A stretch of 64,000 bases of DNA, taken from Coniochaeta sp. PMI_546. Taxonomy: Eukaryota > Ascomycota > Sordariomycetes > Coniochaetales > Coniochaetaceae. Below are positions 36,241-57,322 of the stretch, in pieces. Position 1 is the stretch's first letter. Every line of letters begins with the position of its first letter. The notes beneath the pieces are model-generated. The model saw only the letters and a program-made list of their open reading frames with translations, had not been told where the DNA came from and ran no database searches. The stretch is from assembly GCA_021432605.1 (NCBI GenBank), contig MU271150.1, positions 806,001 to 870,000 of the forward strand, read 5' to 3'. Both the position numbers and the translations under genes were made by a program.

Positions 36241-36534
36241 CAAACACAGGTGACGGCTTGAATTGTGGTGGCCTAATTGACAACCTCAATCTTTTTCTAC
36301 TGTTCTCTGTATCCTCTCTATTTAATATGAAAGCGTGATGGCAGGTTAGCTATATAGCGTTCTTCACGTCTTGAATTCATACGCTCCTTCAACTTCCATT
36401 TATTATCTGTATTCTATACTTTTAAGATCTGACGACTGGGCGCAAAGGAGTCGCCCCCACCCCCGTTCTCCTCGGTGCGGTATCTTGAATTGCTCTGAGA
36501 AGGTCCACCACCATAATCGAAGTTCATCGCTGCA

Positions 36535-39500
36535 ATGGAGTCCAATCCAGAAAAGACAGCTGGCGAGGGATTGCACCAATCGAAGGAATCAGAGCCGACA
36601 AGTACTCCTTCGTCCAAGGACGGGGACAAGACCATCGAGGTGAAGGCGAGGCCTGAGAGAGAGGCAAACTTCAAGGACTACCTGAGGATCTTCAGCTATG
36701 CGAATAAGTTCGACTATGCCTTGATGCTGGCTGGTGCCATCGCCAGCATCGGTGCTGGCATAACCCTCCCATTAATGAACGTTGTCTTTGGCAAGTTGGT
36801 TGGCAACTTTAGCAGCTTTGGAACTCCTGGAGGCACTCCGGATCTAGATGCGTTCCGGACGACTCTCAACAAGCAGGCCCTCTACATATTTGGGCTCTTT
36901 ATCGCGCGCTTCGGTCTGAACTACATCAACAAGTTCTGCTTCCGCCTGATCGGGATCCGCATGTCGGCGGGTATCAGGCTGCATTACCTGCAGTCCCTAT
37001 TCGGTCAGACGATTCACGTCCTCGACTCGATGCCCTCGGGCGCTGCGGCCAGCACCATCACCGCAACGGCTAATACGCTTCAGCTCGGCATATCTGAGAA
37101 GCTGGGGACATTCATCGAATTCACCGCCACCATCGTCTCGGCCATTATCATCGCTTTCACATACAGCTGGTCACTGACTCTTGTCACCGCTTCTGTGATA
37201 CTCTTCATCGTCCTCGTGCTGTCCATTCTACTTCCTTTCATCATCAAGGGCATGTCCAACGTCACCAAGGCCGAATCGAAGGCAAACTCCATTGCTACGG
37301 AGGCATTCAGTGGTATCCGTATGGTGTCTTCTTGTGGGGCAGAAGCTCGTGTCGCCAGCCGGTACTCTGAATGGGTACGAAAGGCGGAGTATTACGGACT
37401 GACTACGTCGCCGCTGACGGCCATTCAGTTTGGAATGATATTCTTCTCCATGTATGCGATGTTTGCCCTGGCCTTTTGGTACGGCACCAAGTCCTACGCC
37501 GAGGGTCATCTTGGAAGCATTGGAGACATCATTGTGGTTCTGATGTCTGTCATGATGATGGTTATGTCGCTTGAGCGGACCTCGACGCCGCTGATTGCCG
37601 TGTCTAAGGCCATGGTTGCTGCGGCCGAATTCTTCACCATCATTGACGCACCACGGCCTGAGATTGGCAAGCTCGAAGACCCAGATGTCAGCGCCAGTGA
37701 CGATATCGTCTTCACCGATGTGACGTTTGCTTACCCCAGCCGCGCCTCGAAGAAAGTTCTGGATGGTCTGAACTTGCGTATCGAGGCCAACAAGAACACC
37801 GCCATCGTCGGTCCTAGTGGCTCAGGGAAGAGTACCATTGTCGGACTCATCCAAGGGTGGTACACCCTACACGACCAATACGTCATTGCCAAGACCGTTG
37901 AGAAGGACAGGAAGAAGGACAAGAAGAAGAAGAAGAAGAAGAAGGGCAAGGGTGATGAGACCGAGGAGGAGGAGGAAGGCGAAAGCCTGCCTCACAGCAT
38001 TGAGGAAGTCGGGCCTCCAGTCGAACTCAAGGGTACCATCTCGACCTCTGGCCATCGGTTGGATGAGATCAACATCAAGTGGTGGAGGTCGCAGATTGGG
38101 TTGGTCCAACAAGAGCCATTCCTATTCAATGACTCGATCTACAACAACGTATCAGCTGGGCTGATTGGCACCGACATGGAGAATGCCTCAGAAGAGGAAA
38201 AGAGACAGCTAGTGAAGACTGCGTGCACCGAGTCCTTCGCTGATGAGTTCATCGACCGCCTCCCGGATGGGTACGACACGCAAGTTGGTGACCAGGGCAC
38301 CAAGCTCAGTGGTGGACAGAGGCAGCGTATTGCGATCGCAAGGAGCATCATTGCCAAGCCGAAGATACTCATTCTCGATGAGGCCACGTCGGCGATTGAC
38401 GTCCGAGGAGAACGTATCGTCCAACAAGCGCTAGAGAGAGCTTCCAAAGGTCGGACGACAATCACCATTGCCCACCGGCTGTCGACCATCAAGGACGCGG
38501 ACAGGATTGTGGTGCTTCAGAATGGCAAGGTTGCCGAAGAAGGCACGCATGAGAGCCTTCTCTCAAACCCTGATGGCGTCTACTATGGTCTCGTCTATGC
38601 TCAGAAATTGTCGCTCGGTGACGGCGAAGATGACGGGCCCATGCACGAAGAAGACATTGGTGATATTCTCGAACGCGAAAAGAGTGCTGCAAGGTCAGAA
38701 GCGGCCGAGGAGAAAAAACCTGCGATGTGGAAAGAGCGGAATCTCATCAACGGTTTCGGAAAGCTACTCGGCGAGCAGAAGACCAAGATACCATTGTATA
38801 TCATTGCTCTTCTCGGCGCGGCTGGTGCTGCGGCTGCGGTGCCGCTTCAAGCTTACTTGTTTGCAAAGGTGTGTTTCCCGGAATCATACACGAGCTACGG
38901 TAATGTTGCCGTTGCCCAGTGCTAACAAGACTTATCTAGATCATTAATGTGTTCTCCCTGACGGGTCAACAGTTTCTCGACGAAGGTGCCTACTGGTCCA
39001 AATGGTGGGCTGTGCTCGCTGCTGGCGTCGGCCTAAGCTACTTCACAACTAGTATTGCCTCTACGAACTGCGAACACTCGATAGCGGCCGTATATCGACA
39101 GCAGTACTTTGAGTCTCTACTATTTCAGAAGACTTCCTACTTCGACCAGGAAGACAATTCGACGGGCCAACTCTCGGCCAGGCTTTCTGGCGATCCTACG
39201 GCTTTAAAGGAACTTCTCGGACTCAACATGATGATCATGCTCGTTGGCATGTTTACCCTTGTGGGAGCGCTAGCCATCTCTTTTGCGTACGGGTGGAAGC
39301 TAGCTCTTGTAGCTCTTTTTGTCACCATCCCGCTTGGTGTTGCGTCGGGCTACTTCCGTGTCAGGTACGAGCTCCAGTTCAACGCCATGAACGAGGCCGT
39401 CTTCTCCGAGAGCTCCAAGTTTGCCGCCGAGTCGATTGGTGCCTTCAGGACCGTCAGCTCGCTCGTAATGGAAGACAGTATCATCAGAAGGTATCAGAAT

Positions 39501-40694
39501 CTGCTCGACGGCCATGTCACGGCCGCGTACAAGAAAGCACGGTGGACGACCATCATCTTTGCGCTCTCCGACAGCGTAAGTTTGGGCTGTCAAGCTCTGG
39601 TGTTCTGGTACGGAGGTCAGCTGCTGATGTCGGGCGAATACAATGTCACTGCGTTCTTCGTCACCTACATGGCGGTGATTCAGGGAGCGGAGTCGGCCGG
39701 TACATGGCTCAGCTTTGGCCCTAATGCGGCCCAGGCTTCCGCGGCGGCCAACCGTATTCTGAGCATTCGCGACACCAAGAATCTCGACAGCATCTCGGCC
39801 AATGAGCAGGTTCCCGACACTGACGGCGGTGTGAAGATCGAATTTCGGGATGTTCACTTCAAGTACCCTACCAGGGACATCTCCATCTTCAAGGGTCTCA
39901 ACCTCACCATCGAAAAAGGCCAATTCGCCGCACTAGTCGGCGCCTCCGGATCCGGAAAGACGTCCATCGTGAGCCTGCTAGAGCGGTTTTACGACGTCAA
40001 TAAGGGAAGCATCCTCTTCAACGGCAAAGACATCACTCACATGAACCTGTACGAGTACCGCAAACTCCTCTCTCTCGTCGCTCAGGAACCGAGTCTCTTC
40101 CAGGGAACTATCAAGGAAAATATCCTGCTTGGCGTGGACCCCGCAAGCGTCACGGACGAGCAACTCTACCAAGTTTGCAAGGACGCCAATATCCATGAGT
40201 TCATCATGTCACTGCCGGACGGCTACAACACTAACATCGGTAATAAAGGCGTAAGCTTGAGTGGCGGGCAGAAGCAGAGAGTTTCGATTGCCCGTGCTTT
40301 GATCAGGGACCCGCGTGTCTTGCTTTTGGATGAAGCGACCAGCTCGCTCGACTCTGGTAAGATACTCGGTTCCGCCGATCCTTGAGAAGCTGTTCGTTTG
40401 TACTAATGACGCCATACCCAACAGAAAGCGAAAAGCTCGTCCAGGCAGCGTTTGAAAGAGTCGCTAAGGGGCGGACGACCGTTGCTGTGGCACATCGGCT
40501 GGCTACGATCCAAAATGCCGACATCATCTACGTCCTTGGCGAGGGCAAAGTGCTTGAGAGTGGAAGCCATTCTGAGCTTCTCAGGCACAAGGGAGTGTAT
40601 TATCACATGGTATTTCGCTCTTTACTCCTTACGACGTCTGGCCAGCGGCAAAGCTAACAACACGCAGTGTCACAACCAGGCACTCGACAGGTAG
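36535..40694 (+). CDS. Full-size ABCB (MDR/P-glycoprotein type) multidrug transporter
   Basis: Four exons, 36535-38868, 38940-40356, 40425-40609 and 40668-40694, giving 1320 residues in a (TMD-NBD)x2 layout. The family exports lipids, peptides or xenobiotics across the plasma membrane using ATP. The first TMD starts near residue 60 ([22 protein letters not shown]). NBD1 has Walker [10 protein letters not shown] (426-434), signature [14 protein letters not shown] (about 591) and Walker [13 protein letters not shown]2 begins near 755. NBD2 has [24 protein letters not shown] and [12 protein letters not shown], the last split by intron 2. An unusual 54-residue charged insert (a run of nine lysines in a row, then Glu-rich; about 446-499) sits between Walker A and the Q-loop of NBD1. 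The last exon adds only CHNQALDR. Confidence 0.96.
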
Positions 40695-43038: not shown

Positions 43039-46000
43039 CTACCCAAGTCCAACCGCCCAAGCCGCATTCCCCAGCTGCTTGAGCAAATGAATGATGTTAT
43101 CGCTAATAGGCGGCAGCCCCTCCTGCCCATCGATAAAGTTGGCCCGCAGGATCTCTTGCGCGACCTCCATGCAGCTCTTCGGGTCCGTGACGAGGCTTTC
43201 CGACACCGGCGCCGACGTATCCAGACTCTGAGGACCGCAGACCGCCGCCCGGCCCTGTCCGAACCCGATGAAGCGCTGCACCGGCGCCGAGTCCTCGCCG
43301 TCGAGATACACCACCTCGTATTTCATCAAGCCCGGCAGCGAGCTGCGCCGCGCCGCCTTGGTCACGACCCCGTGCGCCCAGAGACAGAGTGCTGCGTGGT
43401 GGACGGCGACGGCGTAAAAGTCTTTCAGGTGGCCTGGCGGGAATAACTTGGCTTGTCGGAGGATCTGGCCGGCGTGCCAGAGCGCTTGGCGTGCTTCTGC
43501 GCTGTCCGACCACTTTTGCAACGTCGGATAGATCCTGCGTGCTTGATCGTCGCCCTCCTTGCCGGCAAACAGTTGCAAGTCATCCAGAGAGACGTGTAGA
43601 TTCAGCTGCAAAAGATGGAGTACCAGGCTCTCCTGCGCCGACATGGCATCACGCCACGCCGAGACGACTAATTGGAAGTTCTGCAGCAGTTGGCACAATT
43701 CCTGATGTCGCGAGCTGAGGAGGAGGTTCGGGTTGCTGGAGTAGTTCGGCCTGTCTGCCTTGACACGGAAAACCGAGTTTAGCTGCCGGTATTCCCAAAT
43801 CAGCGCCCAGAAGCCGTGAAGATAGACAGAGATGGCAAACTGCATATCAAGCCTCTGGTGGTTGGCTGTTAGCAAGTTGATATCTCGCAGAAGATCGCCC
43901 AGAGACGGCGCCCGCTTGCCCTCCCCGGCACCCGCCTCAAGGTATCGCATCTTAAACTCTTGCGCCGTCTTCGCGAACCAGAGTTCTTTCGAGCACGGTA
44001 ACGGCAGCGTTAGTTCTGCGTACGACATCGACATGTTGTTGAACTGCGTCATCGACACCTGGGCGTCCCGGAGGTAGGCGTGGTAAACCAATCTAGAGCG
44101 CATAAGCATCCTGTTCACAACATGAAGAACAGATAGGAAACAAACCTCTTCCACGCCTCAAGTTCGCTCCACTTCCTCCATTTCTCCTCCAAGACCTTGC
44201 CCTCATCTGTAGGCTCTATCACCAATTGTGGGTAGTGAGATCGCTGAAACTTGCCCCGATACCTCATCATCTTTATGTGGTCAGTATGAGAGCCACAGCA
44301 ATTGCCATTCACGTAGAGCTTACCGCAATTGGTATGTTCAGATCTACATGACTGGTTAGCTTCCGGTCTAGTCTCATATGCTCTGGCGCGACTTACGGCA
44401 CTCTGCAATCTCCATCTTCCGTCTGTTACCGCTCCAGAGTCCGACGTCCTGGACCATAATCAGTGCCTGGACAAGACTGATATCGGCAATGGTCTTGTTG
44501 TTCTCCTCGAACTAGTAACATGTATTAGTAGTCTTGTTCGCTTGACACCCGCGAGAATGATATTGAACCAGACGAAAGTGCATAGACCGCGCACTCACTC
44601 TTGTAGGAACCGTTACGCCTATGTACCAGATGTCAGTGTATATGCCTCTGCGGTCATGGTCTTGAACCACTTACGGACTGCCTCCTGAAGTGCAAACCCA
44701 AAGCGGCGAAGCGTCGGAATCGGAGCCAGTACGGCACCAGCAGAAGCTGCCATCGCGAGCCACTCTGGCCACTGGTTATTTAGGGAGAATGTCGGGTAGT
44801 GGATAAAAGACGAGACCTGGCACATGTGGGATGCCAGGAAGATATGGACCCAGGAGTCCATGACCTCAGTGGATGGAAACGACGATGCGACACGGGACAT
44901 CATATTGTCATTGCGACAGGTGCTCAGCACGATAGCCAAGATCTTGTCGCGGCCAGCCGAATACAAGGTCTCGCTGACAACGGGATCTTTTCTCAACTGT
45001 CGACAGTGTAGTCGCGCAGCGCCAGCGTCCCGGGAAGGCAACGGCAAGTTACCCTGCTCGTTGAACCCGGTGTCCGTCTTTTCGGGATTGAAACGCCACG
45101 GCGACTTGGTCCATATTTGCACCAGCCGCTGTCGCATCTTGTCCATGTCTGGGGCTGGGTCTTGCGCTTTCGACTGGAGTCCTGCTGTGTTAGGGTCTTG
45201 ACCAAACATGTTGGCGTCGATGTTCCAGTGGTCCAGAAGACCAAAGTCTATGTCGTTGAGCTCCAGGTTTGCGTCGTCGCAGAAGTCCAGGACCGCAAGT
45301 CCTTGGGCTTCCGCATATCTGGTCTGTTCACCAAGTGACTGCTCATACAGCACATCGCGTAAGAAGTCAGAGAAGGGAAGTTTTGCCACTTCGACCATAG
45401 CTTGACTTGGGAATGGTTGCTGAAAGGTGTCCGAGTTGCTGTGATCCATCATGGTCTCCGGCGTTAATAATTGCGGCTCGTCTTTCAATGGTTGGTTGTT
45501 CGTCAAAGACGGGGTCTGAGCCAGGAGCTGTGCGTTAGATTGATCATATACCGTCGACGGCACTCCGATGGGCACTGGTACTTGGGAGGTTGGAGCAACA
45601 TTGTAGTACGCTACATCTGGGCTTGCATGCTGAAGTGTCTGAGGCTGCTGGGACTGCTGGGACTGAGGTTCGGCAGTACGAGCTTTGGCCGAGAGGTGGA
45701 GCAGATGCATCGCCGCATCTTCCGAGGAGCCATACTCGCAGTTCAAGCCCCTGTTTTTACATCGAGTGCAACTGGGCTCCGCGTCAGTGATTTTCCGGAT
45801 TGACATCGACAGAGGCAATAGACTTACGGTTTCGTCTCTTCGCACTTGACTCGGGCCTTAGCACATGCCTGACAAGCATGAGCCACACGGCCAGCGCCAG
45901 GAGAGGCGCTGATGCGTCTTCGCTTGGTACCGTTGTCGTCCGAGTGGTTCGTACGGTGCCTCTTGAGGAGATCCGCACGAGAGAATGCTTTTGAGCATAT

Positions 46001-46485
46001 CTAGGCATATAACATATGAGCCACAAGGTCTGCATCCACGGGAGCGAGGGTTGACTTTACATCGCATTGGAAGCGCTTTCCGAGAGTATGAGTCGCGATG
46101 TGCCTCTACTTCATGTTAGGGTATTGTATATACAAGCGCCAGCAGACCATACCTGTAGATGCTCTGGGCGAGAATAGCGTTCTAGCACGAGTCAGTGACA
46201 TTGGTGCCGAGGAAAAAGGGGTTGGACCGACGCACTTAGACAGTCGGCGCATTGGTAGAGTGACTGCGTCGATGAGTGATTACGAGGGCCTTGGGAGCCA
46301 GGAGCTGGCGACCCGGTGCTGTTAGGGATGGTGAGAGGGGGTGAGGCTGCCATCGGTGCCAGTGGGCCTCTGTTTGACGGAGGCGGTCCGAGTGCCACTT
46401 GTGCACCGAGTGCTGGTGTTGCCGGGGTGAAGACGGAACGAGTAGCATCGGTATGGTGGATGAGATTAGCTAGTGGGCTGGCCAT
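43039..46485 (-). CDS. Transcription factor with two C2H2 fingers and a Zn2Cys6 cluster
   Basis: Ten exons: 46485-46236, 46181-46153, 46105-46061, 46000-45828, 45771-44675, 44618-44599, 44511-44397, 44343-44324, 44270-44146 and 44110-43039, giving 981 residues. Finger 1 is CADCLKRYSRPEHLQRHIATH (C79, C82, H95, H99) and finger 2 is CDICSKAFSRADLLKRHRTNH (C107, C110, H123, H127). Each finger is put together from pieces of different exons. The binuclear cluster follows: C151, C154, C161, C167, C170, C177 with canonical spacing and basic residues between. The rest is a fungal-specific regulatory (middle homology) domain with Gln-rich linker. Combined C2H2+Zn2Cys6 proteins are a known fungal class. 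It could control the metabolic genes to its right, which is inference. An earlier in-frame ATG at 46644 would add 53 residues. Confidence 0.9.
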
Positions 46486-49036: not shown

Positions 49037-51009
49037 ATGGCCGACCCGGACGCCGTTGCTCCCGCATTGAAGGCCGACCAGGAAGACGAGAGTCTTGAGG
49101 TTGTGCGCAAGAGGACCTTGGGCAATGTCCGCCTTCGCCACCACCAGACGAACGAGATCATTCAGATTCCCACCCCTTCCAATGATCCCAATGACCCGTT
49201 GAACTGGTATGCATATGTTTGTTCCATGGATACTCGATGCCATATTCTTACATAGCTTCACAGGCCACAATGGTACAAGTGGTACATCGCGACGGGTATG
49301 CTCCCTCTACTGAGTAGTTCTGGGTCAGAGTCGTAGTCACTAACATGGCACGGAATAGTCATCTGTATTGCCATGATGATGTGCAACTTCCTCGCGGCCG
49401 GACCGACCATTGCCATCGTCTCAACTACCATGAGCTTCTTCCCCGGTGCCAATCCGATGACTGACCCGGCGTTCTTCGCCTCCTCGGTCGGCAAAGTGGC
49501 TTACTTCTTCACGTCTACGGCGCTCTTGCAAGGAGTCGGAAACTTCTTCTGGGTGCCTGTTGCCAACAAGTTCGGTCGTCGTCCGACCTACGTGATTAGC
49601 TACGTTATATATACAGTAAGTCTTGGCCAGGACCTGGTGTCACAGATAGCATGCTGACCAGAGCAACACTAGGCCTGTGCCATCTGGCTTATCTTTGAAC
49701 ATTCCTTCAATGGCTTCCTTGCCGGTCGCATCCTTATGGGCTTTGGCGCTGGAGCGGCTGAAACAATCGGTAAGTTAGGAAAGCGGCGAGTTACAAGTCC
49801 TGCAGGGCGCTCAAGGTTCGTTCGCTGACATATCGCTTCATAAGCCCCGGTCACCATTGCGGACATCTTCTTCCTCCACGAGCGCGGCGCCGTCATGGCT
49901 CTCTACACATCATTCCTTTCCGTCGGTGTCGGCTTCGGCATGATCATCTGCGGCCTGATCACCATCAACCACGACTGGAGAGTGATCTACCAAGTAGCCT
50001 CGGCGCTGATTGGCTTCGTCTTGCTTCTTGCCTTCTTCACCTTCCCAGAGACGGCATACATCCGTGAACGCGAGCCGCTTCTGGAGGATATCCGCCGCCA
50101 ACCATCTTCCGTGGGCGAGAAACCGGATGTCTCGGCCACTAGCGACGTCGAACATGCCGCCCGTCCCGTGCCCCCGAAGCAGTCGTACTGGGAGTCACTC
50201 AAGATTTTTCACCGCACCCTAACGGACGAAAGCTTCCTCAAGCTTGTCCTCCGACCCCTGGGCCTCATCTGCTTACCGCCTGTCCTATGGGCTGCCCTAG
50301 TTGAGTCTGTGACCATCGGTTTCCTTGTCGCCGTGACGTCCAACGTTGACGTAGCCTTCGAGGCTGCGTACGGCTTCGAATCTTGGCAGGTCGGTCTCTG
50401 CTTCATTGCTGCCATCATCGGGTCGATCATCGGCATCCCGGCCGGTGGCCACTTGGGGGACATGACGGCGGACTTCTTTACGAAGCGGAACGGCGGGATT
50501 CGCGATCCCGAGATGCGTCTGCCAGCCATGATTCCTTGTCTTATCACCACGCCCTTGGCGCTTGTTCTCTACGGTGTTGGTATCGAGCACAAGCTGCACT
50601 GGATCTGTCCGACTATCGGACTTGGGCTTTGTGAGACTCCCCCTTACCCCGAGACCCTCGAATAATCCGTTAGACTAACTCGGTTTCAGTGAACTTCTCC
50701 ATCGTCCAAGGCACCAATATTTGCCTAGTTTACGTTATCGACGCATACCGACCTGTGGCTGGTGAGGTCACACTCGCCGTCATGGGCTTCAAGTCGATGT
50801 TTGGGTTCCTCCTCTCCTTTTACACGAATCAGTGGGTGGCCTCGTCGGGATACCAGAACGCCTACGGAGTCATGGCTGCTATCGCTGCCGCCGTGATCCT
50901 TATGTTTTTGCCGCTGTACTGGTGGGGGAAGAAGATCCGCCACGTCACCTGGTCGTGGCCTGTTATCTCTTACATCCACTGGGACGATGATCGGGAGGTG
51001 GGCGAGTGA
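49037..51009 (+). CDS. Major facilitator superfamily transporter (DHA1-like)
   Basis: Six exons: 49037-49206, 49264-49295 (32 bases), 49359-49615, 49673-49769, 49845-50630 and 50690-51009, giving 553 residues with about 12 hydrophobic helices. The cytosolic N-terminus ends in PSNDPNDPLNWPQWYKWYIA, the entry common to fungal DHA1 drug/metabolite:proton antiporters. The loop 2-3 motif PVANKFGRRPTYVIS, GRILMGFGAGAAETIAPVTIADIFF in the helix 4-5 region, and FPETAYIRER at the end of the first half are all typical. A long central loop of about 70 residues separates the halves, and GIPAGGHLGDMTADFF resembles the second-half GR repeat. The C-terminus is charged (HWDDDREVGE). Its place beside the SDR, monooxygenase and cupin genes suggests it moves the cluster's substrate or product. 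Confidence 0.93.
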
Positions 51010-51525: not shown

Positions 51526-52460
51526 TTACAATGCCATGCCGCCGTCGATAACGGCATTCACTCCGGTCACACTCCGACTCCGCGCAAAACAAAGAACCTG
51601 CTCAGCGACATCCTTTCGGTGATGTTAGCCATGGTGTCCGCCTGCAATTGGAGCGAACAAATACTTACCTCGACAGTGGCAAGACGCTTCAATTTGGTGC
51701 GCTGCTTCATCTCTTCTTGCTTTTCGAGCGGGAACTTGAGTCCCCATTCCTGTTTATTTTAGCATCAGATATCTCACTTGCAACAAAAGGGAGTACTTAC
51801 CGTCAGCATCAGTCCTGGAGCCACGCTGTTCACCCGTATCTTGGGGCTTGCTGCGATTGCCAGGCCCTTGACTAGGTGAATCTGAGCCGCTTTCGTTACG
51901 GCATATGCCTACCGTATCTGTTAGCACCCAGCTGTAGCGCATCACATCCTCGATTTGGGTGAACTCACCATAGAACTACCGCTGAACTTGACGCCAGCCA
52001 ATGAGGCGGTCGTGATGAAAGCACCCTCGGTCTCGTCAAGATACTTCTTGGCAGCATGCATCAGCCACAGATGCGACTTGACGTTCATGTTGAAGCACAA
52101 ATCCCAGTCCTCCTCGTCGACATTATCATCCAAGTCGTTGATGTTCCTCATTCTTGTCCACCCACCGTTCGAGAAGACAATGTCAAGTTGACCCATGGTG
52201 GCTACAGACTCCTCAACGAGCCGGCGGATGTCACCCCTCTTGGAGAGGTCGGCCTGGACGGCATGATAGTCGACCCTACTTGTATCACCACTCGCGACAG
52301 TTGAGATGGACTGCAGTTCCTTCACCAGGGTCTGGGCTCTCTCAGCGTTACTGGCGTAGTTCACCACGACGCGGATGCCGTTCTTTGCAAAGAGTCGCGC
52401 CGTTGTTGCACCAAGACCCGCAGTGCCTGCTGTTATCAGGGCCACGAGAGGAGTTGACAT
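51526..52460 (-). CDS. Short-chain dehydrogenase/reductase (classical SDR)
   Basis: Four exons, 52460-51969, 51908-51801, 51749-51669 and 51612-51526, giving 255 residues, the classical SDR size. It is an NAD(P)H-dependent oxidoreductase for alcohols or ketones. The cofactor fold starts at ALITAGTAGLGATTARLFA, a TGxxxGxG variant, then NGG in IVFSNGGW in place of NNAG. The catalytic Ser is in TTASLAGVKFSGSS and the YxxxK motif is AYAVTKAAQ. RVNSVAPGLMLT and VTGVNAVIDGG close the domain. VVVNYASNAERA after beta-2 has no acid that would reject NADP, so NADPH is the likely cofactor (inference). It is divergently placed from the monooxygenase-decarboxylase gene with 1.07 kb between the two starts, and the two may be controlled together. 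Confidence 0.93.
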
Positions 52461-53531: not shown

Positions 53532-55977
53532 ATGGACACTGTGAAAGCGGTCGTGAACGGCCATGTGCCGCTCACCAACGGTGACCATGAAGGCCCAAAG
53601 GATGGGTTCAGCCCTCTAGTAGACGAGTGCGAGACACCGCTGAAGATTGCTATCGTTGGAGCTGGGATCGGGGGTCTCAGCGCTGCCATCGGTCTGCGCC
53701 GCAACGGCCATGAAGTCGAGGTTGGTTCCGTGCTTTCTCCATCTGAGGCCCAGTAGAGGAAACTCGTACCTAACTCGAAGTGAAGCTGTACGAACAATCA
53801 CGGTTCGCAAACGAAGTCGGCGCAGCGGTCCATCTAGCACCAAATTCGAACGGTATACTACGGAGATGGGGCATATACGCCGAGGAGTTCGGCGGCAACC
53901 CAATGAGCCACCTCGTCGAGTTCTCGATGGATGGCCAAGTGATGAAAAAGGCTGATTTGACGGGACCCAATCAACGTTGGCAACATCCGTGGCTCCTCGT
54001 TCACCGTGTCAGTCTGCACGACCAACTTAAGAAACTAGCTACATCAGAGGACGGTGCCGGCATCCCTGCAAAGCTACATACAGCAAGCAAGGTCGTCCAG
54101 ATCAATCCTGAGGAGGGCACTCTGACTCTAGAAAATGGCGAAACTAGCACTGCGGACATCATAGTGGGCGCTGACGGCGTATATGTATGTCGAACCCCTG
54201 ATCCGAGTGTGCAGACTTCCACTAATGTCGAATAGTCCTTGACGAGAAAGTACATCAAGGACACGAAGCCCTTCAGCTCCGGAAAGGCGGCCTTCCGCTT
54301 CCTTATTCCACGCTCCGTCGCCGAGGCGGACCCGGTGACACAGCCGCTTGTAGCGGACAAGGGCGCCCTTCTAATGTGGTATTCGGACGACAGGCGGATA
54401 GTCATGTACCCTTGCAACGACAACGAGATGCTGAATTTCGTGTGTATTCACCCGGACACAGAGTCCCATGCAACTAAGTGCGATGGTACGTGCGACTGCA
54501 ATGTGAAGTCCGGAAAAGAGGCTAACAGACAGCAGAATGGAACAAGCAGGCGTCCATTGAGCAGGTTCTGAAGGTTTATGAGAACTTTGATCCCGCCATC
54601 AAGGCTCTGATCAGCAAGGTCGAGCCATCGTCGATCAAGGTTTGGCAGCTGTTGGATATGGAGACGCTGGAGACGTGGACCAAGGGGAAGCTGGTTCTGC
54701 TCGGTGATGCCGCTCATCCGTTCACGCCTCGTAAGTGAGCATCCGATCAGAGGAGTTCCATTGTTTGCTAATGACCTCAAGACCAGGGTCAAGGTGCCGG
54801 GCAGGCAATGGAAGATGCTGCAGCTCTGACGGTGGTGCTACCACGCGGCACAGCACCTGAAGCTATTCCTGAGCGGCTGAAACTCTACGAGGAGATCAGG
54901 TACGAGCGAGCACACGCCATCCAAGATTACTCTCGCAAAGCAGGCCAGAACATGGTGGCAGGAAAGCCCGCAATCGATAGTAAGCCCACTCCCACCCCAA
55001 GCCCCTGAATCAGCCAAGGTTGACAAAACTCAGTGATGCAATACACAAACCACAACTTTGGCCACGACGAGTTTGACCACGCCTCCAACATCTTCAAGCG
55101 CTGGAAGTGGGCCAAGAAACCAGACATGTACTGGCGCATGCCGATCGCCTTCGGACCTTTCCCTGGTCCTCGCATGGATGCCTACGGCCGCCGCCGCCTA
55201 GCCGACGGGCCAACCAGGCGCTTCACCACCACCTCCATCAAATTCAAGACCTCGCGGACCTTTTTGGAAACCATCCTGCCAACCTCGCAATTCAGCTTTG
55301 CGTCGGCCGACACGGTCGCAACAGCCTCCTTCTCCGTCACGCGCCTGGACAAGATGGCCTGGCTGGGCGGGCAGGGCTACACCCATCTCGGCCTGTACGT
55401 CCACGGGGTGCAGTACACCAAGAAAGACGGCAGCACCATCACCGGAACCTACCTGCCCATCCTGTTCGAGAGCCTGACGGACCCGATCGTCTCCGGCCGG
55501 GAGGAACTGGGCATGCCGAAGCTCTTCTGCGACATCGAGATGCACAACCGCTCCCGCTCGTGCCACATCGCGGCCTCCTGGCGCGGGGCGACGTTCGCCA
55601 ACCTGTCCCTCTCGGATCTGGCCGAGGACGACCCGGCGACGGAGCACGGTACCATCGGCGGAGAGGCGGACTACGGGATCTTGGTGTATCGGTACATACC
55701 CGCCGTGGGCGAACCGGGCAAGGCGGACGCGGAATATGCCTGCGTGGTGCCCCACGAGGAGGAGGCCAAGGTGCAGAAGGCCACGGTGGAGAAGGTGTGG
55801 CGGGCGAGGCCCGAGAAGGCGAGTGTGGATATCAAGGGGTTGGACTGGGATGCGCTGCCGACGCTGCATCATGTCACTGATGTCCTTGCGCAAATTCCGG
55901 TGTATGAGGTGCTGGCGGCCAAGGTTGTTGAGGGACGGGGAGTGCCGGATGTGATGGCTGCTAGGAGGATTGAGTAG
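53532..55977 (+). CDS. FAD monooxygenase fused to an acetoacetate-decarboxylase-like domain
   Basis: Six exons: 53532-53720, 53786-54184, 54236-54485, 54536-54730, 54782-54979 and 55034-55977, giving 724 residues. The first 420 are a class A flavin monooxygenase of the salicylate-hydroxylase type: FAD motif IVGAGIGGLSAAIGL (about 41-55), DG motif IIVGADGVYS (about 190), and GD motif LLGDAAHPFTPHQGQGAGQAMEDAA (about 335-360). Such enzymes hydroxylate aromatic acids with NAD(P)H and O2. From about 450 the chain becomes an acetoacetate-decarboxylase-like barrel: LDKMAWLGGQGYTHLGLYVHGVQY, LPILFESLTDPIVSGREELGMPKLF, with the Schiff-base lysine expected in GMPKL (about 573). No stop, splice failure or second promoter separates the halves and the last intron lies before the second domain, so the fusion looks real. 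Hydroxylation coupled to decarboxylation is inference. Confidence 0.93.
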
Positions 55978-56764: not shown

Positions 56765-57322
56765 ATGTCTTTGCAACCAAAGGCCAGCCCCCTCCGGGAC
56801 ATCCAGCGCTTCATAACCACCCACGACGCCTCGGGCGTCGCCGTCTTCGACACCACGATCCCGGAGTCCCCGCCAGCCAAGGTCATCGAGAACGGCGACA
56901 AGTTCATCCTCGGCTACGCGACCAACCAGACGCCCGTGGATTTCGACTCGGATCTGCCCACCTACAACGCCTACCTCTCCGACCTCCCGGGCGTGATGAT
57001 ACCCGGCGGCACCGTCCTGCGGTTCGTGGACATCCGGCCCGGGGGCGAGAGTCCGATGCACCGGACCGTGAGTCTGGATTACGGTGTTGTGATTGAGGGG
57101 GAGGTTGAGCTGGAGCTGGACAGCGGGGAGAAGAGGCTGATGAGGCGCGGGGATTGCAGTGTCCAGCGCGGGACGATGCATATGTGGAGGAACAAGAGTG
57201 AGACGGAGTGGGCTAGGATGATGTATGTGCTTCAGGAGGCGAGGCCGATTGTGGTGGGGGGAAAAGAGCTGGGGGAGGATTACGGAGTTGGGATGGGCAA
57301 TGTCAGGGCTAGTGGGCATTAG
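56765..57322 (+). CDS. Single-domain cupin protein
   Basis: Single exon of 185 residues. Cupins are small beta-barrels that usually hold a metal ion and act as dioxygenases, isomerases, dehydratases or decarboxylases. The barrel core is RFVDIRPGGESPMHRTVSLDYGVVIEGEVELELDSGE (motif 1) and RGDCSVQRGTMHMWRNKSETEWARMMYVL (motif 2). Motif 1 keeps one His (MHRT) with Asp in place of the second His and no motif Glu, while motif 2 keeps His followed by Asn. This HRT-x-S-x-DY form is common in fungal stand-alone cupins next to oxidoreductase genes. It lies 0.8 kb after the monooxygenase fusion on the same strand, so a shared pathway is likely. The ATG at 56765 is the first in frame. Reaction unknown. 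Confidence 0.9.
   Translation: MSLQPKASPLRDIQRFITTHDASGVAVFDTTIPESPPAKVIENGDKFILGYATNQTPVDFDSDLPTYNAYLSDLPGVMIPGGTVLRFVDIRPGGESPMHRTVSLDYGVVIEGEVELELDSGEKRLMRRGDCSVQRGTMHMWRNKSETEWARMMYVLQEARPIVVGGKELGEDYGVGMGNVRASGH

What the first reader, a model, noticed from the sequence alone, without database searches (positions are those of the whole stretch)
53532..55977. Flavin monooxygenase fused in one chain to an acetoacetate-decarboxylase-like domain
Six exons splice in phase into a 724-residue protein. The salicylate-hydroxylase-type FAD motifs are complete (GxGxxG, DG, GD), and they are followed by a full ADC-like barrel with the expected Schiff-base lysine in GMPKL. Hydroxylation of an aromatic or enolised beta-keto acid, followed by decarboxylation on the same chain, would be a neat tandem reaction. 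I know the two families separately but not a characterised enzyme with this combination.
Basis: partly seen in the sequence, partly recalled or inferred. Interest (0 to 1): 0.75.

Follow-up and report, generated by a model that had tools for sequence, protein, structure and literature searches.

The report
Fungal flavin oxygenase with lysine-enzyme tail
A fungal-looking gene joins an oxygen-using flavin enzyme for aromatic acids to a second, decarboxylase-shaped enzyme domain in a single protein; the join looks real, but the second domain keeps only one of the known catalytic residues, so its reaction is open.

Summary
In detail: six exons (53532-55977, +) splice in phase into 724 residues, with FAD_binding_3 at 38-393 (E 5.7e-24) and ADC at 470-708 (E 6.8e-17). 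Exon 6 carries the linker and the whole ADC part in one frame; its model matches ADC-superfamily structures. Splicing is inferred, not seen. The tandem hydroxylase/decarboxylase reading is only partly supported. Of five C. acetobutylicum ADC catalytic positions, only the Schiff-base lysine (K573) is kept. The FMO half is nearest to hydroxylases named as decarboxylating by themselves, but has Arg where 5 of 5 shown relatives have His. The ADC half belongs to an FGPxxGPR subfamily of free-standing proteobacterial proteins; on two related Rhizobium/Agrobacterium plasmids it sits in an aromatic-cleavage-like operon with a separate FAD_binding_3 monooxygenase. The fungal neighbours are an SDR, a cupin, an MFS transporter and a probable regulator. 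Most likely it is a bifunctional enzyme of an aromatic-acid or quinone pathway, with the second reaction unassigned. No described enzyme of this kind turned up in the searched papers; no fungal genome collection was available.

The parts
53532..53720 (+). exon 1: N-terminal extension and start of FAD domain (aa 1-63, GAGIGG at 43-48)
53786..54184 (+). exon 2: FAD domain (aa 64-196, GADG 191-194)
54236..54485 (+). exon 3: R250 in place of a His shared by the 5 solved relatives shown; Y254 kept
54536..54730 (+). exon 4: FAD domain with GDAAHP (336-341)
54782..54979 (+). exon 5: last stretch of clear FMO homology
55034..55977 (+). exon 6: FMO tail/linker (aa 411-437) and whole ADC-like domain (aa 438-724), Schiff-base lysine K573
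51526..52460 (-). SDR gene divergent from the fusion gene; exons 51969-52460, 51801-51908, 51669-51749, 51526-51612; 255 aa
   Evidence: SDR-type NCBIfam models match below their cut-offs
56765..57322 (+). single-domain cupin gene (Cupin_2), 185 aa
49013..51009 (+). MFS transporter gene, exons not resolved; only the piece 49844-50662 was tested (MFS_1, 1e-17)
43042..46056 (-). probable regulator gene, exons not resolved; cysteine/histidine-rich finger-like stretches read by eye; Fungal_trans match in 43042-44157 is under its cut-off (20.3 against 23 bits); no Pfam match in 44622-45857

Best explanation
One gene encodes a two-domain enzyme of a small gene cluster for an aromatic acid or a quinone-like compound. 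The N-terminal group A flavin monooxygenase uses NAD(P)H and O2 to hydroxylate a (hydroxy)aromatic acid, probably at or next to the carboxyl-bearing carbon, giving a hydroquinone, catechol or cyclic keto acid. The C-terminal ADC-superfamily barrel binds a keto-acid intermediate of the same pathway as a Schiff base on K573 and breaks a C-C bond: decarboxylation of a (vinylogous) beta-keto acid, or a retro-aldol/hydration step. The neighbouring SDR and cupin act on the same intermediates. Shown by computation: open spliced frame, both domains, fold, lysine position, subfamily, neighbours. Inferred: splicing, substrates, the reaction of each domain, and that the cluster genes share one pathway.
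For: Splice model and domains. Solved FMO relatives act on aromatic acids: 8x38 (5.4e-50), 8gsm (5.3e-49), 5eow (by the depositors' names). Exon-6 model: mean pLDDT 78.4, 156 of 313 residues at 90 or more; Foldseek top hit 3cmb (2e-19), then aldolase-dehydratases, ADCs and MppR, 24 chains at E 6.5e-10 or better. Lysine in 29 of 29 aligned rows, window included. The ADC half groups with 12 bacterial rows (support 100/99); FGPxx[GS]PR is in 13 of 13 rows of that group and 0 of 20 others, also after extending those 20 frames upstream. In 2 of 14 loci of this group (related R. leguminosarum and A. vitis plasmid operons) a FAD_binding_3 monooxygenase gene lies next, or next but one, to the ADC gene, with a VOC protein (best model HpaD, below cut-off) and a FAA_hydrolase. 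A dehydrogenase gene lies within 1.2 kb in 8 of 14. In the wider set an SDR match is within 1.2 kb in 41 of 67 loci, 38 of 41 same strand, against 19.2 by random placement. The asperpentyn cluster combines an oxidatively decarboxylating FAD monooxygenase, a cupin and an SDR (PMC12356543, passages).
Against: No transcript and no fungal homologue could be examined. R250 replaces a His found in the 5 of 5 relatives shown, so the decarboxylative mechanism may not apply. Four of five ADC catalytic positions are changed. The window FMO finds no relative in 0 of 61 fetched loci (flanks up to 6 kb) and 0 of 6 more; the two loci with an FMO are one lineage and their FMO is only 22-23% identical to the window's. 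The window SDR is only 23-28% identical to bacterial ADC-linked SDRs, SDR genes are common, 5 of the 41 near cases supplied the SDR queries, and 38 of the 61 loci are methanogens by title, so cases are not independent. In one search the query proteins came from five of the 14 loci themselves. The ADC row is a long branch (1.79), and its place inside the group is unsure. The N-terminal part of the ADC half, with FGPxxGPR, is modelled with pLDDT under 50.
Confidence: 0.55

Rival explanations
1. One reading: the FMO hydroxylates an aromatic or enolised beta-keto acid and the ADC domain decarboxylates that very product on the same chain, like a classical ADC.
For: Both domains are present with the lysine in place. 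Ipso-hydroxylation of an ortho-hydroxy acid does give a beta-keto acid (salicylate-hydroxylase chemistry, recalled).
Against: R29, E61, E76 and K116 of ADC are not kept. The nearest solved FMOs are named as decarboxylating by themselves. In the plasmid operons a VOC gene and a FAA_hydrolase gene accompany the pair, which points to a later step.
Confidence: 0.2
2. The ADC-like domain acts several steps after the FMO (after ring opening or quinone formation) as a Schiff-base hydratase/aldolase or decarboxylase; the fusion serves co-expression, not channelling.
For: Operon order VOC - FMO - (MFS) - ADC - FAA_hydrolase on the Rhizobium/Agrobacterium plasmids; fold neighbours include aldolase-dehydratases; a cupin and an SDR flank the fungal gene.
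Against: No ring-cleaving dioxygenase was named among the 10 window ORFs tested (other ORFs were not tested); the cupin is not assigned to a reaction.
Confidence: 0.3
3. Two separate genes or a gene-model artefact: the FMO ends in retained intron 5 and the ADC half starts at an internal ATG (55036 or later).
For: Intron 5 lacks the CTRAY branch-like motif and an in-frame ATG opens exon 6. The bacterial relatives read are free-standing.
Against: Phase is kept; only about 135 bp lie between residue 410 and the ADC homology; 26 residues of open frame in exon 6 precede the ADC homology.
Confidence: 0.06
4. The ADC-like domain is catalytically dead and works as a binding or oligomerisation module.
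For: Loss of four of five ADC catalytic residues.
Against: The lysine is kept in all 29 rows compared, and the GREExG context in the window; the rows of the same group lack the other residues too, yet sit in catabolic-looking operons.
Confidence: 0.1

Closest known systems
Decarboxylative 4-hydroxybenzoate/vanillate 1-hydroxylases (PDB 8gsm, 8x38); VibMO1 and AtyG (named in PMC12356543)
   Same: 8x38 and 8gsm are the best solved relatives of residues 36-396 (E 5.4e-50 and 5.3e-49); FAD motifs; Tyr at 254.
   Different: Arg250 in place of the His in the five relatives shown; extra ADC-like domain. VibMO1 and AtyG sequences were not compared.
ADC-like protein of Methanoculleus marisnigri (PDB 3cmb)
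   Same: Best sequence and fold match of the C-terminal half; lysine.
   Different: Free-standing; of the group without FGPxx[GS]PR (3cmb sequence seen); function not established as far as I recall.
Acetoacetate decarboxylase (PDB 3bh2, 3bgt)
   Same: Pfam ADC, fold, K115 position.
   Different: R29, E61, E76, K116 not kept.
ADC-superfamily aldolase-dehydratases and MppR (PDB 4zbo/4zbt/6eej, 5upb, 4jm3/4jmc/4jmd)
   Same: Fold; Foldseek E from 6.9e-13 to about 1e-10.
   Different: 12-14% identity; catalytic residues not compared.
Plasmid operon GST - VOC - FAD_binding_3 hydroxylase - ADC - FAA_hydrolase of R. leguminosarum (L095) and A. vitis (L093)
   Same: Both domain families close together as separate genes; ADC 29-30% identical to the window's.
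   Different: FMO is of the 3-(3-hydroxyphenyl)propionate hydroxylase type, 22-23% identical to the window FMO; not fused.
Asperpentyn (aty) cluster: AtyG FMO, AtyE cupin, AtyC SDR (PMC12356543, passages)
   Same: FMO + cupin + SDR gene set.
   Different: The passages seen describe no ADC domain on AtyG; orthology not tested (no sequences held).

Membership tests
Group A flavin monooxygenase (FAD_binding_3) | Pfam model over its cut-off; GxGxxG, DG and GD motifs | tested here: met
Salicylate 1-monooxygenase (TIGR03219) | score over curated cut-off 446.35 | tested here: not met
   141.2 bits
Decarboxylative 4-hydroxybenzoate/vanillate 1-hydroxylase | His four residues before the Tyr (HxxxY) | tested here: not met
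   R250/Y254; 5 of 5 relatives shown have His; its catalytic role is recalled
Decarboxylative 4-hydroxybenzoate/vanillate 1-hydroxylase | oxidative decarboxylation of the aromatic acid | not testable with these tools
   needs an assay
ADC superfamily | Pfam ADC over cut-off and ADC fold | tested here: met
   62.2 bits against 29.8; Foldseek
ADC superfamily | Schiff-base lysine | tested here: met
   K573 aligned with K115; Schiff base itself not shown
Acetoacetate decarboxylase proper | R29, E61, E76 and K116 (roles recalled) | tested here: not met
   F474, S509, H528; next residue after K573 is Leu (ungapped reading; MAFFT put a gap there)
FGPxxGPR bacterial ADC-like group | clade membership and FGPxx[GS]PR | tested here: met
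   long branch
FMO-ADC fusion in one transcript | both domains in one mRNA | tested here: inconclusive
   frame and splice sites only; no cDNA

The most novel reading that the evidence does not exclude
A single-chain oxygenase/Schiff-base lyase: the flavin domain dearomatises an aromatic acid into a cyclic keto acid, and the lysine barrel captures that unstable product for a C-C cleavage that classical ADCs do not perform. The barrel descends from a bacterial stand-alone gene of catabolic operons that became fused to a fungal monooxygenase.
Probability: 0.2. Interest if true: 0.65.

Novelty: new variant of a known kind. Interest (0 to 1): 0.45.

Why it matters
It joins two enzyme families in an order for which the papers searched gave no described example, and it makes a testable prediction for an unassigned ADC-like group: that these lysine barrels work on products of aromatic hydroxylation or of dehydrogenases. 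If direct transfer occurs, it would be a useful one-pot hydroxylation and C-C-cleavage catalyst. If not, it still points to aromatic metabolism as a place to look for the function of this group.

Tried and rejected
Whole-genome search of the window's own assembly: none held. Long open frames of 405-666 aa around some bacterial ADC genes looked like fusions; reading them showed non-homologous stretches in front of a normal start, so I rejected them; the 74 frames measure 75-356 aa (recounted). FMO near bacterial ADC genes in general: 0 of 61 loci and 0 of 6 with the window FMO as query; a link appeared only in the plasmid operons. Viral contigs: 1 scan, no relative. PDB match for the 81-residue stretch across the junction: only two chance hits at E 1.3 and 1.6, so the tail is not tied to solved FMOs. 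The second structural aligner (pdb_via) was not available. Paper searches with no hit. Paper searches with hits, of which I saw only the listing (20 of 79, 20 of 41, 20 of 79, 15 of 30, 10 of 3,602, 4 of 4); none of the listed titles and abstract starts describes this fusion, and the listed papers hold 'acetoacetate decarboxylase' 0 times. Passages of PMC6934579 and PMC10960036 name fungal 'acetoacetate decarboxylase' genes without architecture. Horizontal transfer of the ADC half is suggested by its single exon, its higher GC3 and its place among bacteria, but the tree held no other fungal row, so it is untested. The SDR link is weakened by the commonness of SDRs, shared ancestry of the loci and low identity.

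Full report
Observation. Pfam gives FAD_binding_3 (38-393, E 5.7e-24) and ADC (470-708, E 6.8e-17), both over cut-off. The window reads as filamentous-fungal DNA (short GT-AG introns in the two genes I spliced); this is inference, since the organism is not told and no genome is held. Exon 6 holds the linker and the entire ADC half. A retained intron 5 would stop the FMO at 55006-55008. About 135 bp separate residue 410 from the ADC homology. I take the fusion as very likely (about 0.94), without transcript proof.

FMO half. The best solved relatives are 8x38 (decarboxylative vanillate 1-hydroxylase), 8gsm (4-hydroxybenzoate decarboxylase), 8r2t (FAD-binding domain protein), 8rqh (tropone 2-monooxygenase) and 5eow (6-hydroxynicotinate 3-monooxygenase). 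NCBIfam models match broadly but far under their cut-offs; the best is 3-hydroxybenzoate 6-monooxygenase, 185.6 against 459 (25 of 90 matches shown). In the five printed alignments a His four residues before a Tyr is present in 5 of 5; the window has R250 and Y254. That this His is catalytic is recalled, not tested. So the scaffold is that of decarboxylative hydroxylases, but the chemistry may differ.

ADC half. A profile of 29 sequences (window plus 28 from bacteria and archaea) finds 3cmb (3.9e-113) and the ADCs 3c8w, 3bgt and 3bh2, four distinct sequences in all. K573 aligns with K115 and is Lys in 29 of 29 rows. R29, E61 and E76 fall on F474, S509 and H528. The residue after K573 is Leu; MAFFT put a gap before K116 and paired it with R585, so Leu574 is my ungapped reading. 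That these are the ADC catalytic residues is recalled. The exon-6 model has mean pLDDT 78.4 and pTM 0.77; its residues 1-46 and 53-57, that is the linker and the first part of the ADC half with FGPxxGPR, are under 50. Foldseek ranks 3cmb first (E 2e-19), then aldolase-dehydratases, ADCs and MppR; 24 chains have E 0.001 or better, the weakest 6.5e-10.

Relatives. A scan of genome contigs gave 61 loci with a relative, 22-31% identical, 38 of 61 methanogens by title. Genome searches found closer ones, rarely: 4 of 396 genomes, 2 of 398, 2 of 99, 5 of 385, 1 of 398 and 3 of 297; queries and E-value limits differ, the centre genomes are counted, and some genomes recur. Those I read are free-standing. 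Plasmid records gave 8 hits, of which I opened 6: five alphaproteobacterial hosts and one Burkholderia. In a tree of 33 rows chosen by me, the window falls with 12 bacterial rows (100/99), and FGPxx[GS]PR separates that group, 13 of 13 against 0 of 20. Two of those 20 rows had been cut short; with the frames extended upstream the count stays 0 of 20. The window's branch is long and its place within the group is unsure.

Neighbourhoods. In 67 prokaryote loci (61 and 6 fetched later) an SDR match lies within 1.2 kb of the ADC gene in 41; 38 of 41 are on the same strand and 34 of 41 within 150 bp, against 19.2 near cases expected by random placement of the ADC in the same loci. 5 of the 41 supplied SDR queries, and many are related methanogens. 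For the window's group I looked at 14 loci (the 12 of the tree plus L087 and L088, kin of L086) with proteins taken from some of these same loci as queries: a dehydrogenase (SDR or 3-hydroxyacyl-CoA-dehydrogenase-like) within 1.2 kb in 8 of 14 (L076, L081, L086, L087, L088, L089, L090, L100); a DAO-type flavoprotein upstream in 3 of these (L086-L088); a FAD_binding_3 monooxygenase in 2 of 14 (L093, L095); none of these in 4 of 14 (L091, L092, L094, L099; L092 shows only about 1 kb on one side). The two plasmid operons also carry a VOC protein (best model HpaD, 93 bits against 321.4), a FAA_hydrolase and a GST. Their proteins are 80-94% identical where compared, so they count as one case. This is the strongest outside support for a link between FMO and ADC-like activity, although the monooxygenase there is of another type, 22-23% identical.

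Fungal neighbours. Divergent SDR 51526-52460, cupin 56765-57322 (PDB 3es1, 8x0u), an MFS transporter and a probable regulator. The asperpentyn cluster also combines an FAD monooxygenase that oxidatively decarboxylates a hydroxybenzoate, a cupin that makes an epoxyquinone, and an SDR (PMC12356543; passages). Similarity of gene set is a lead, not a test.

Conclusion. The likely function is a bifunctional enzyme of aromatic-acid or quinone metabolism. The hydroxylase role is well supported at family level; the second reaction is unassigned, with a Schiff base on K573 as the best guess. Literature: in the library searched, no paper holds both 'acetoacetate decarboxylase' and 'salicylate hydroxylase', nor the term sets. 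The library lacks most subscription journals and no fungal genome set was available, so the architecture may be common among undescribed fungal proteins.

Noticed in passing
L093:1508-9198, L095:2525-7740: Plasmid operon with GST, VOC protein, 3-(3-hydroxyphenyl)propionate-hydroxylase-type FMO, ADC family protein and FAA_hydrolase: an unassigned aromatic pathway with an ADC-like enzyme.
   Followed up: partly
L001-L061 (36 loci of the SDR-near list): 3cmb-type ADC-like genes of methanogens and other prokaryotes are often followed at once by an SDR gene on the same strand.
   Followed up: partly
   Followed up: no
window 56765-57322: Small cupin with MHRTxSLDYG and QRGTxHxWRN; where the usual metal motif has a second His (HxH, recalled) it has Thr.
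   Followed up: partly
window 43042-46056: Regulator-like gene whose pieces seem to join a C2H2-like finger stretch with Zn2Cys6-like cysteines (read by eye, no Pfam hit over cut-off).
   Followed up: no
window 53532-55977: GC3 0.64 in the first 430 codons and 0.83 in the rest; all five introns lie in or at the end of the FMO half.
   Followed up: no
window 36517-40382: ABC transporter ORFs, with ABC_membrane and ABC_tran in both 36517-38922 and 38940-40382.
   Followed up: no
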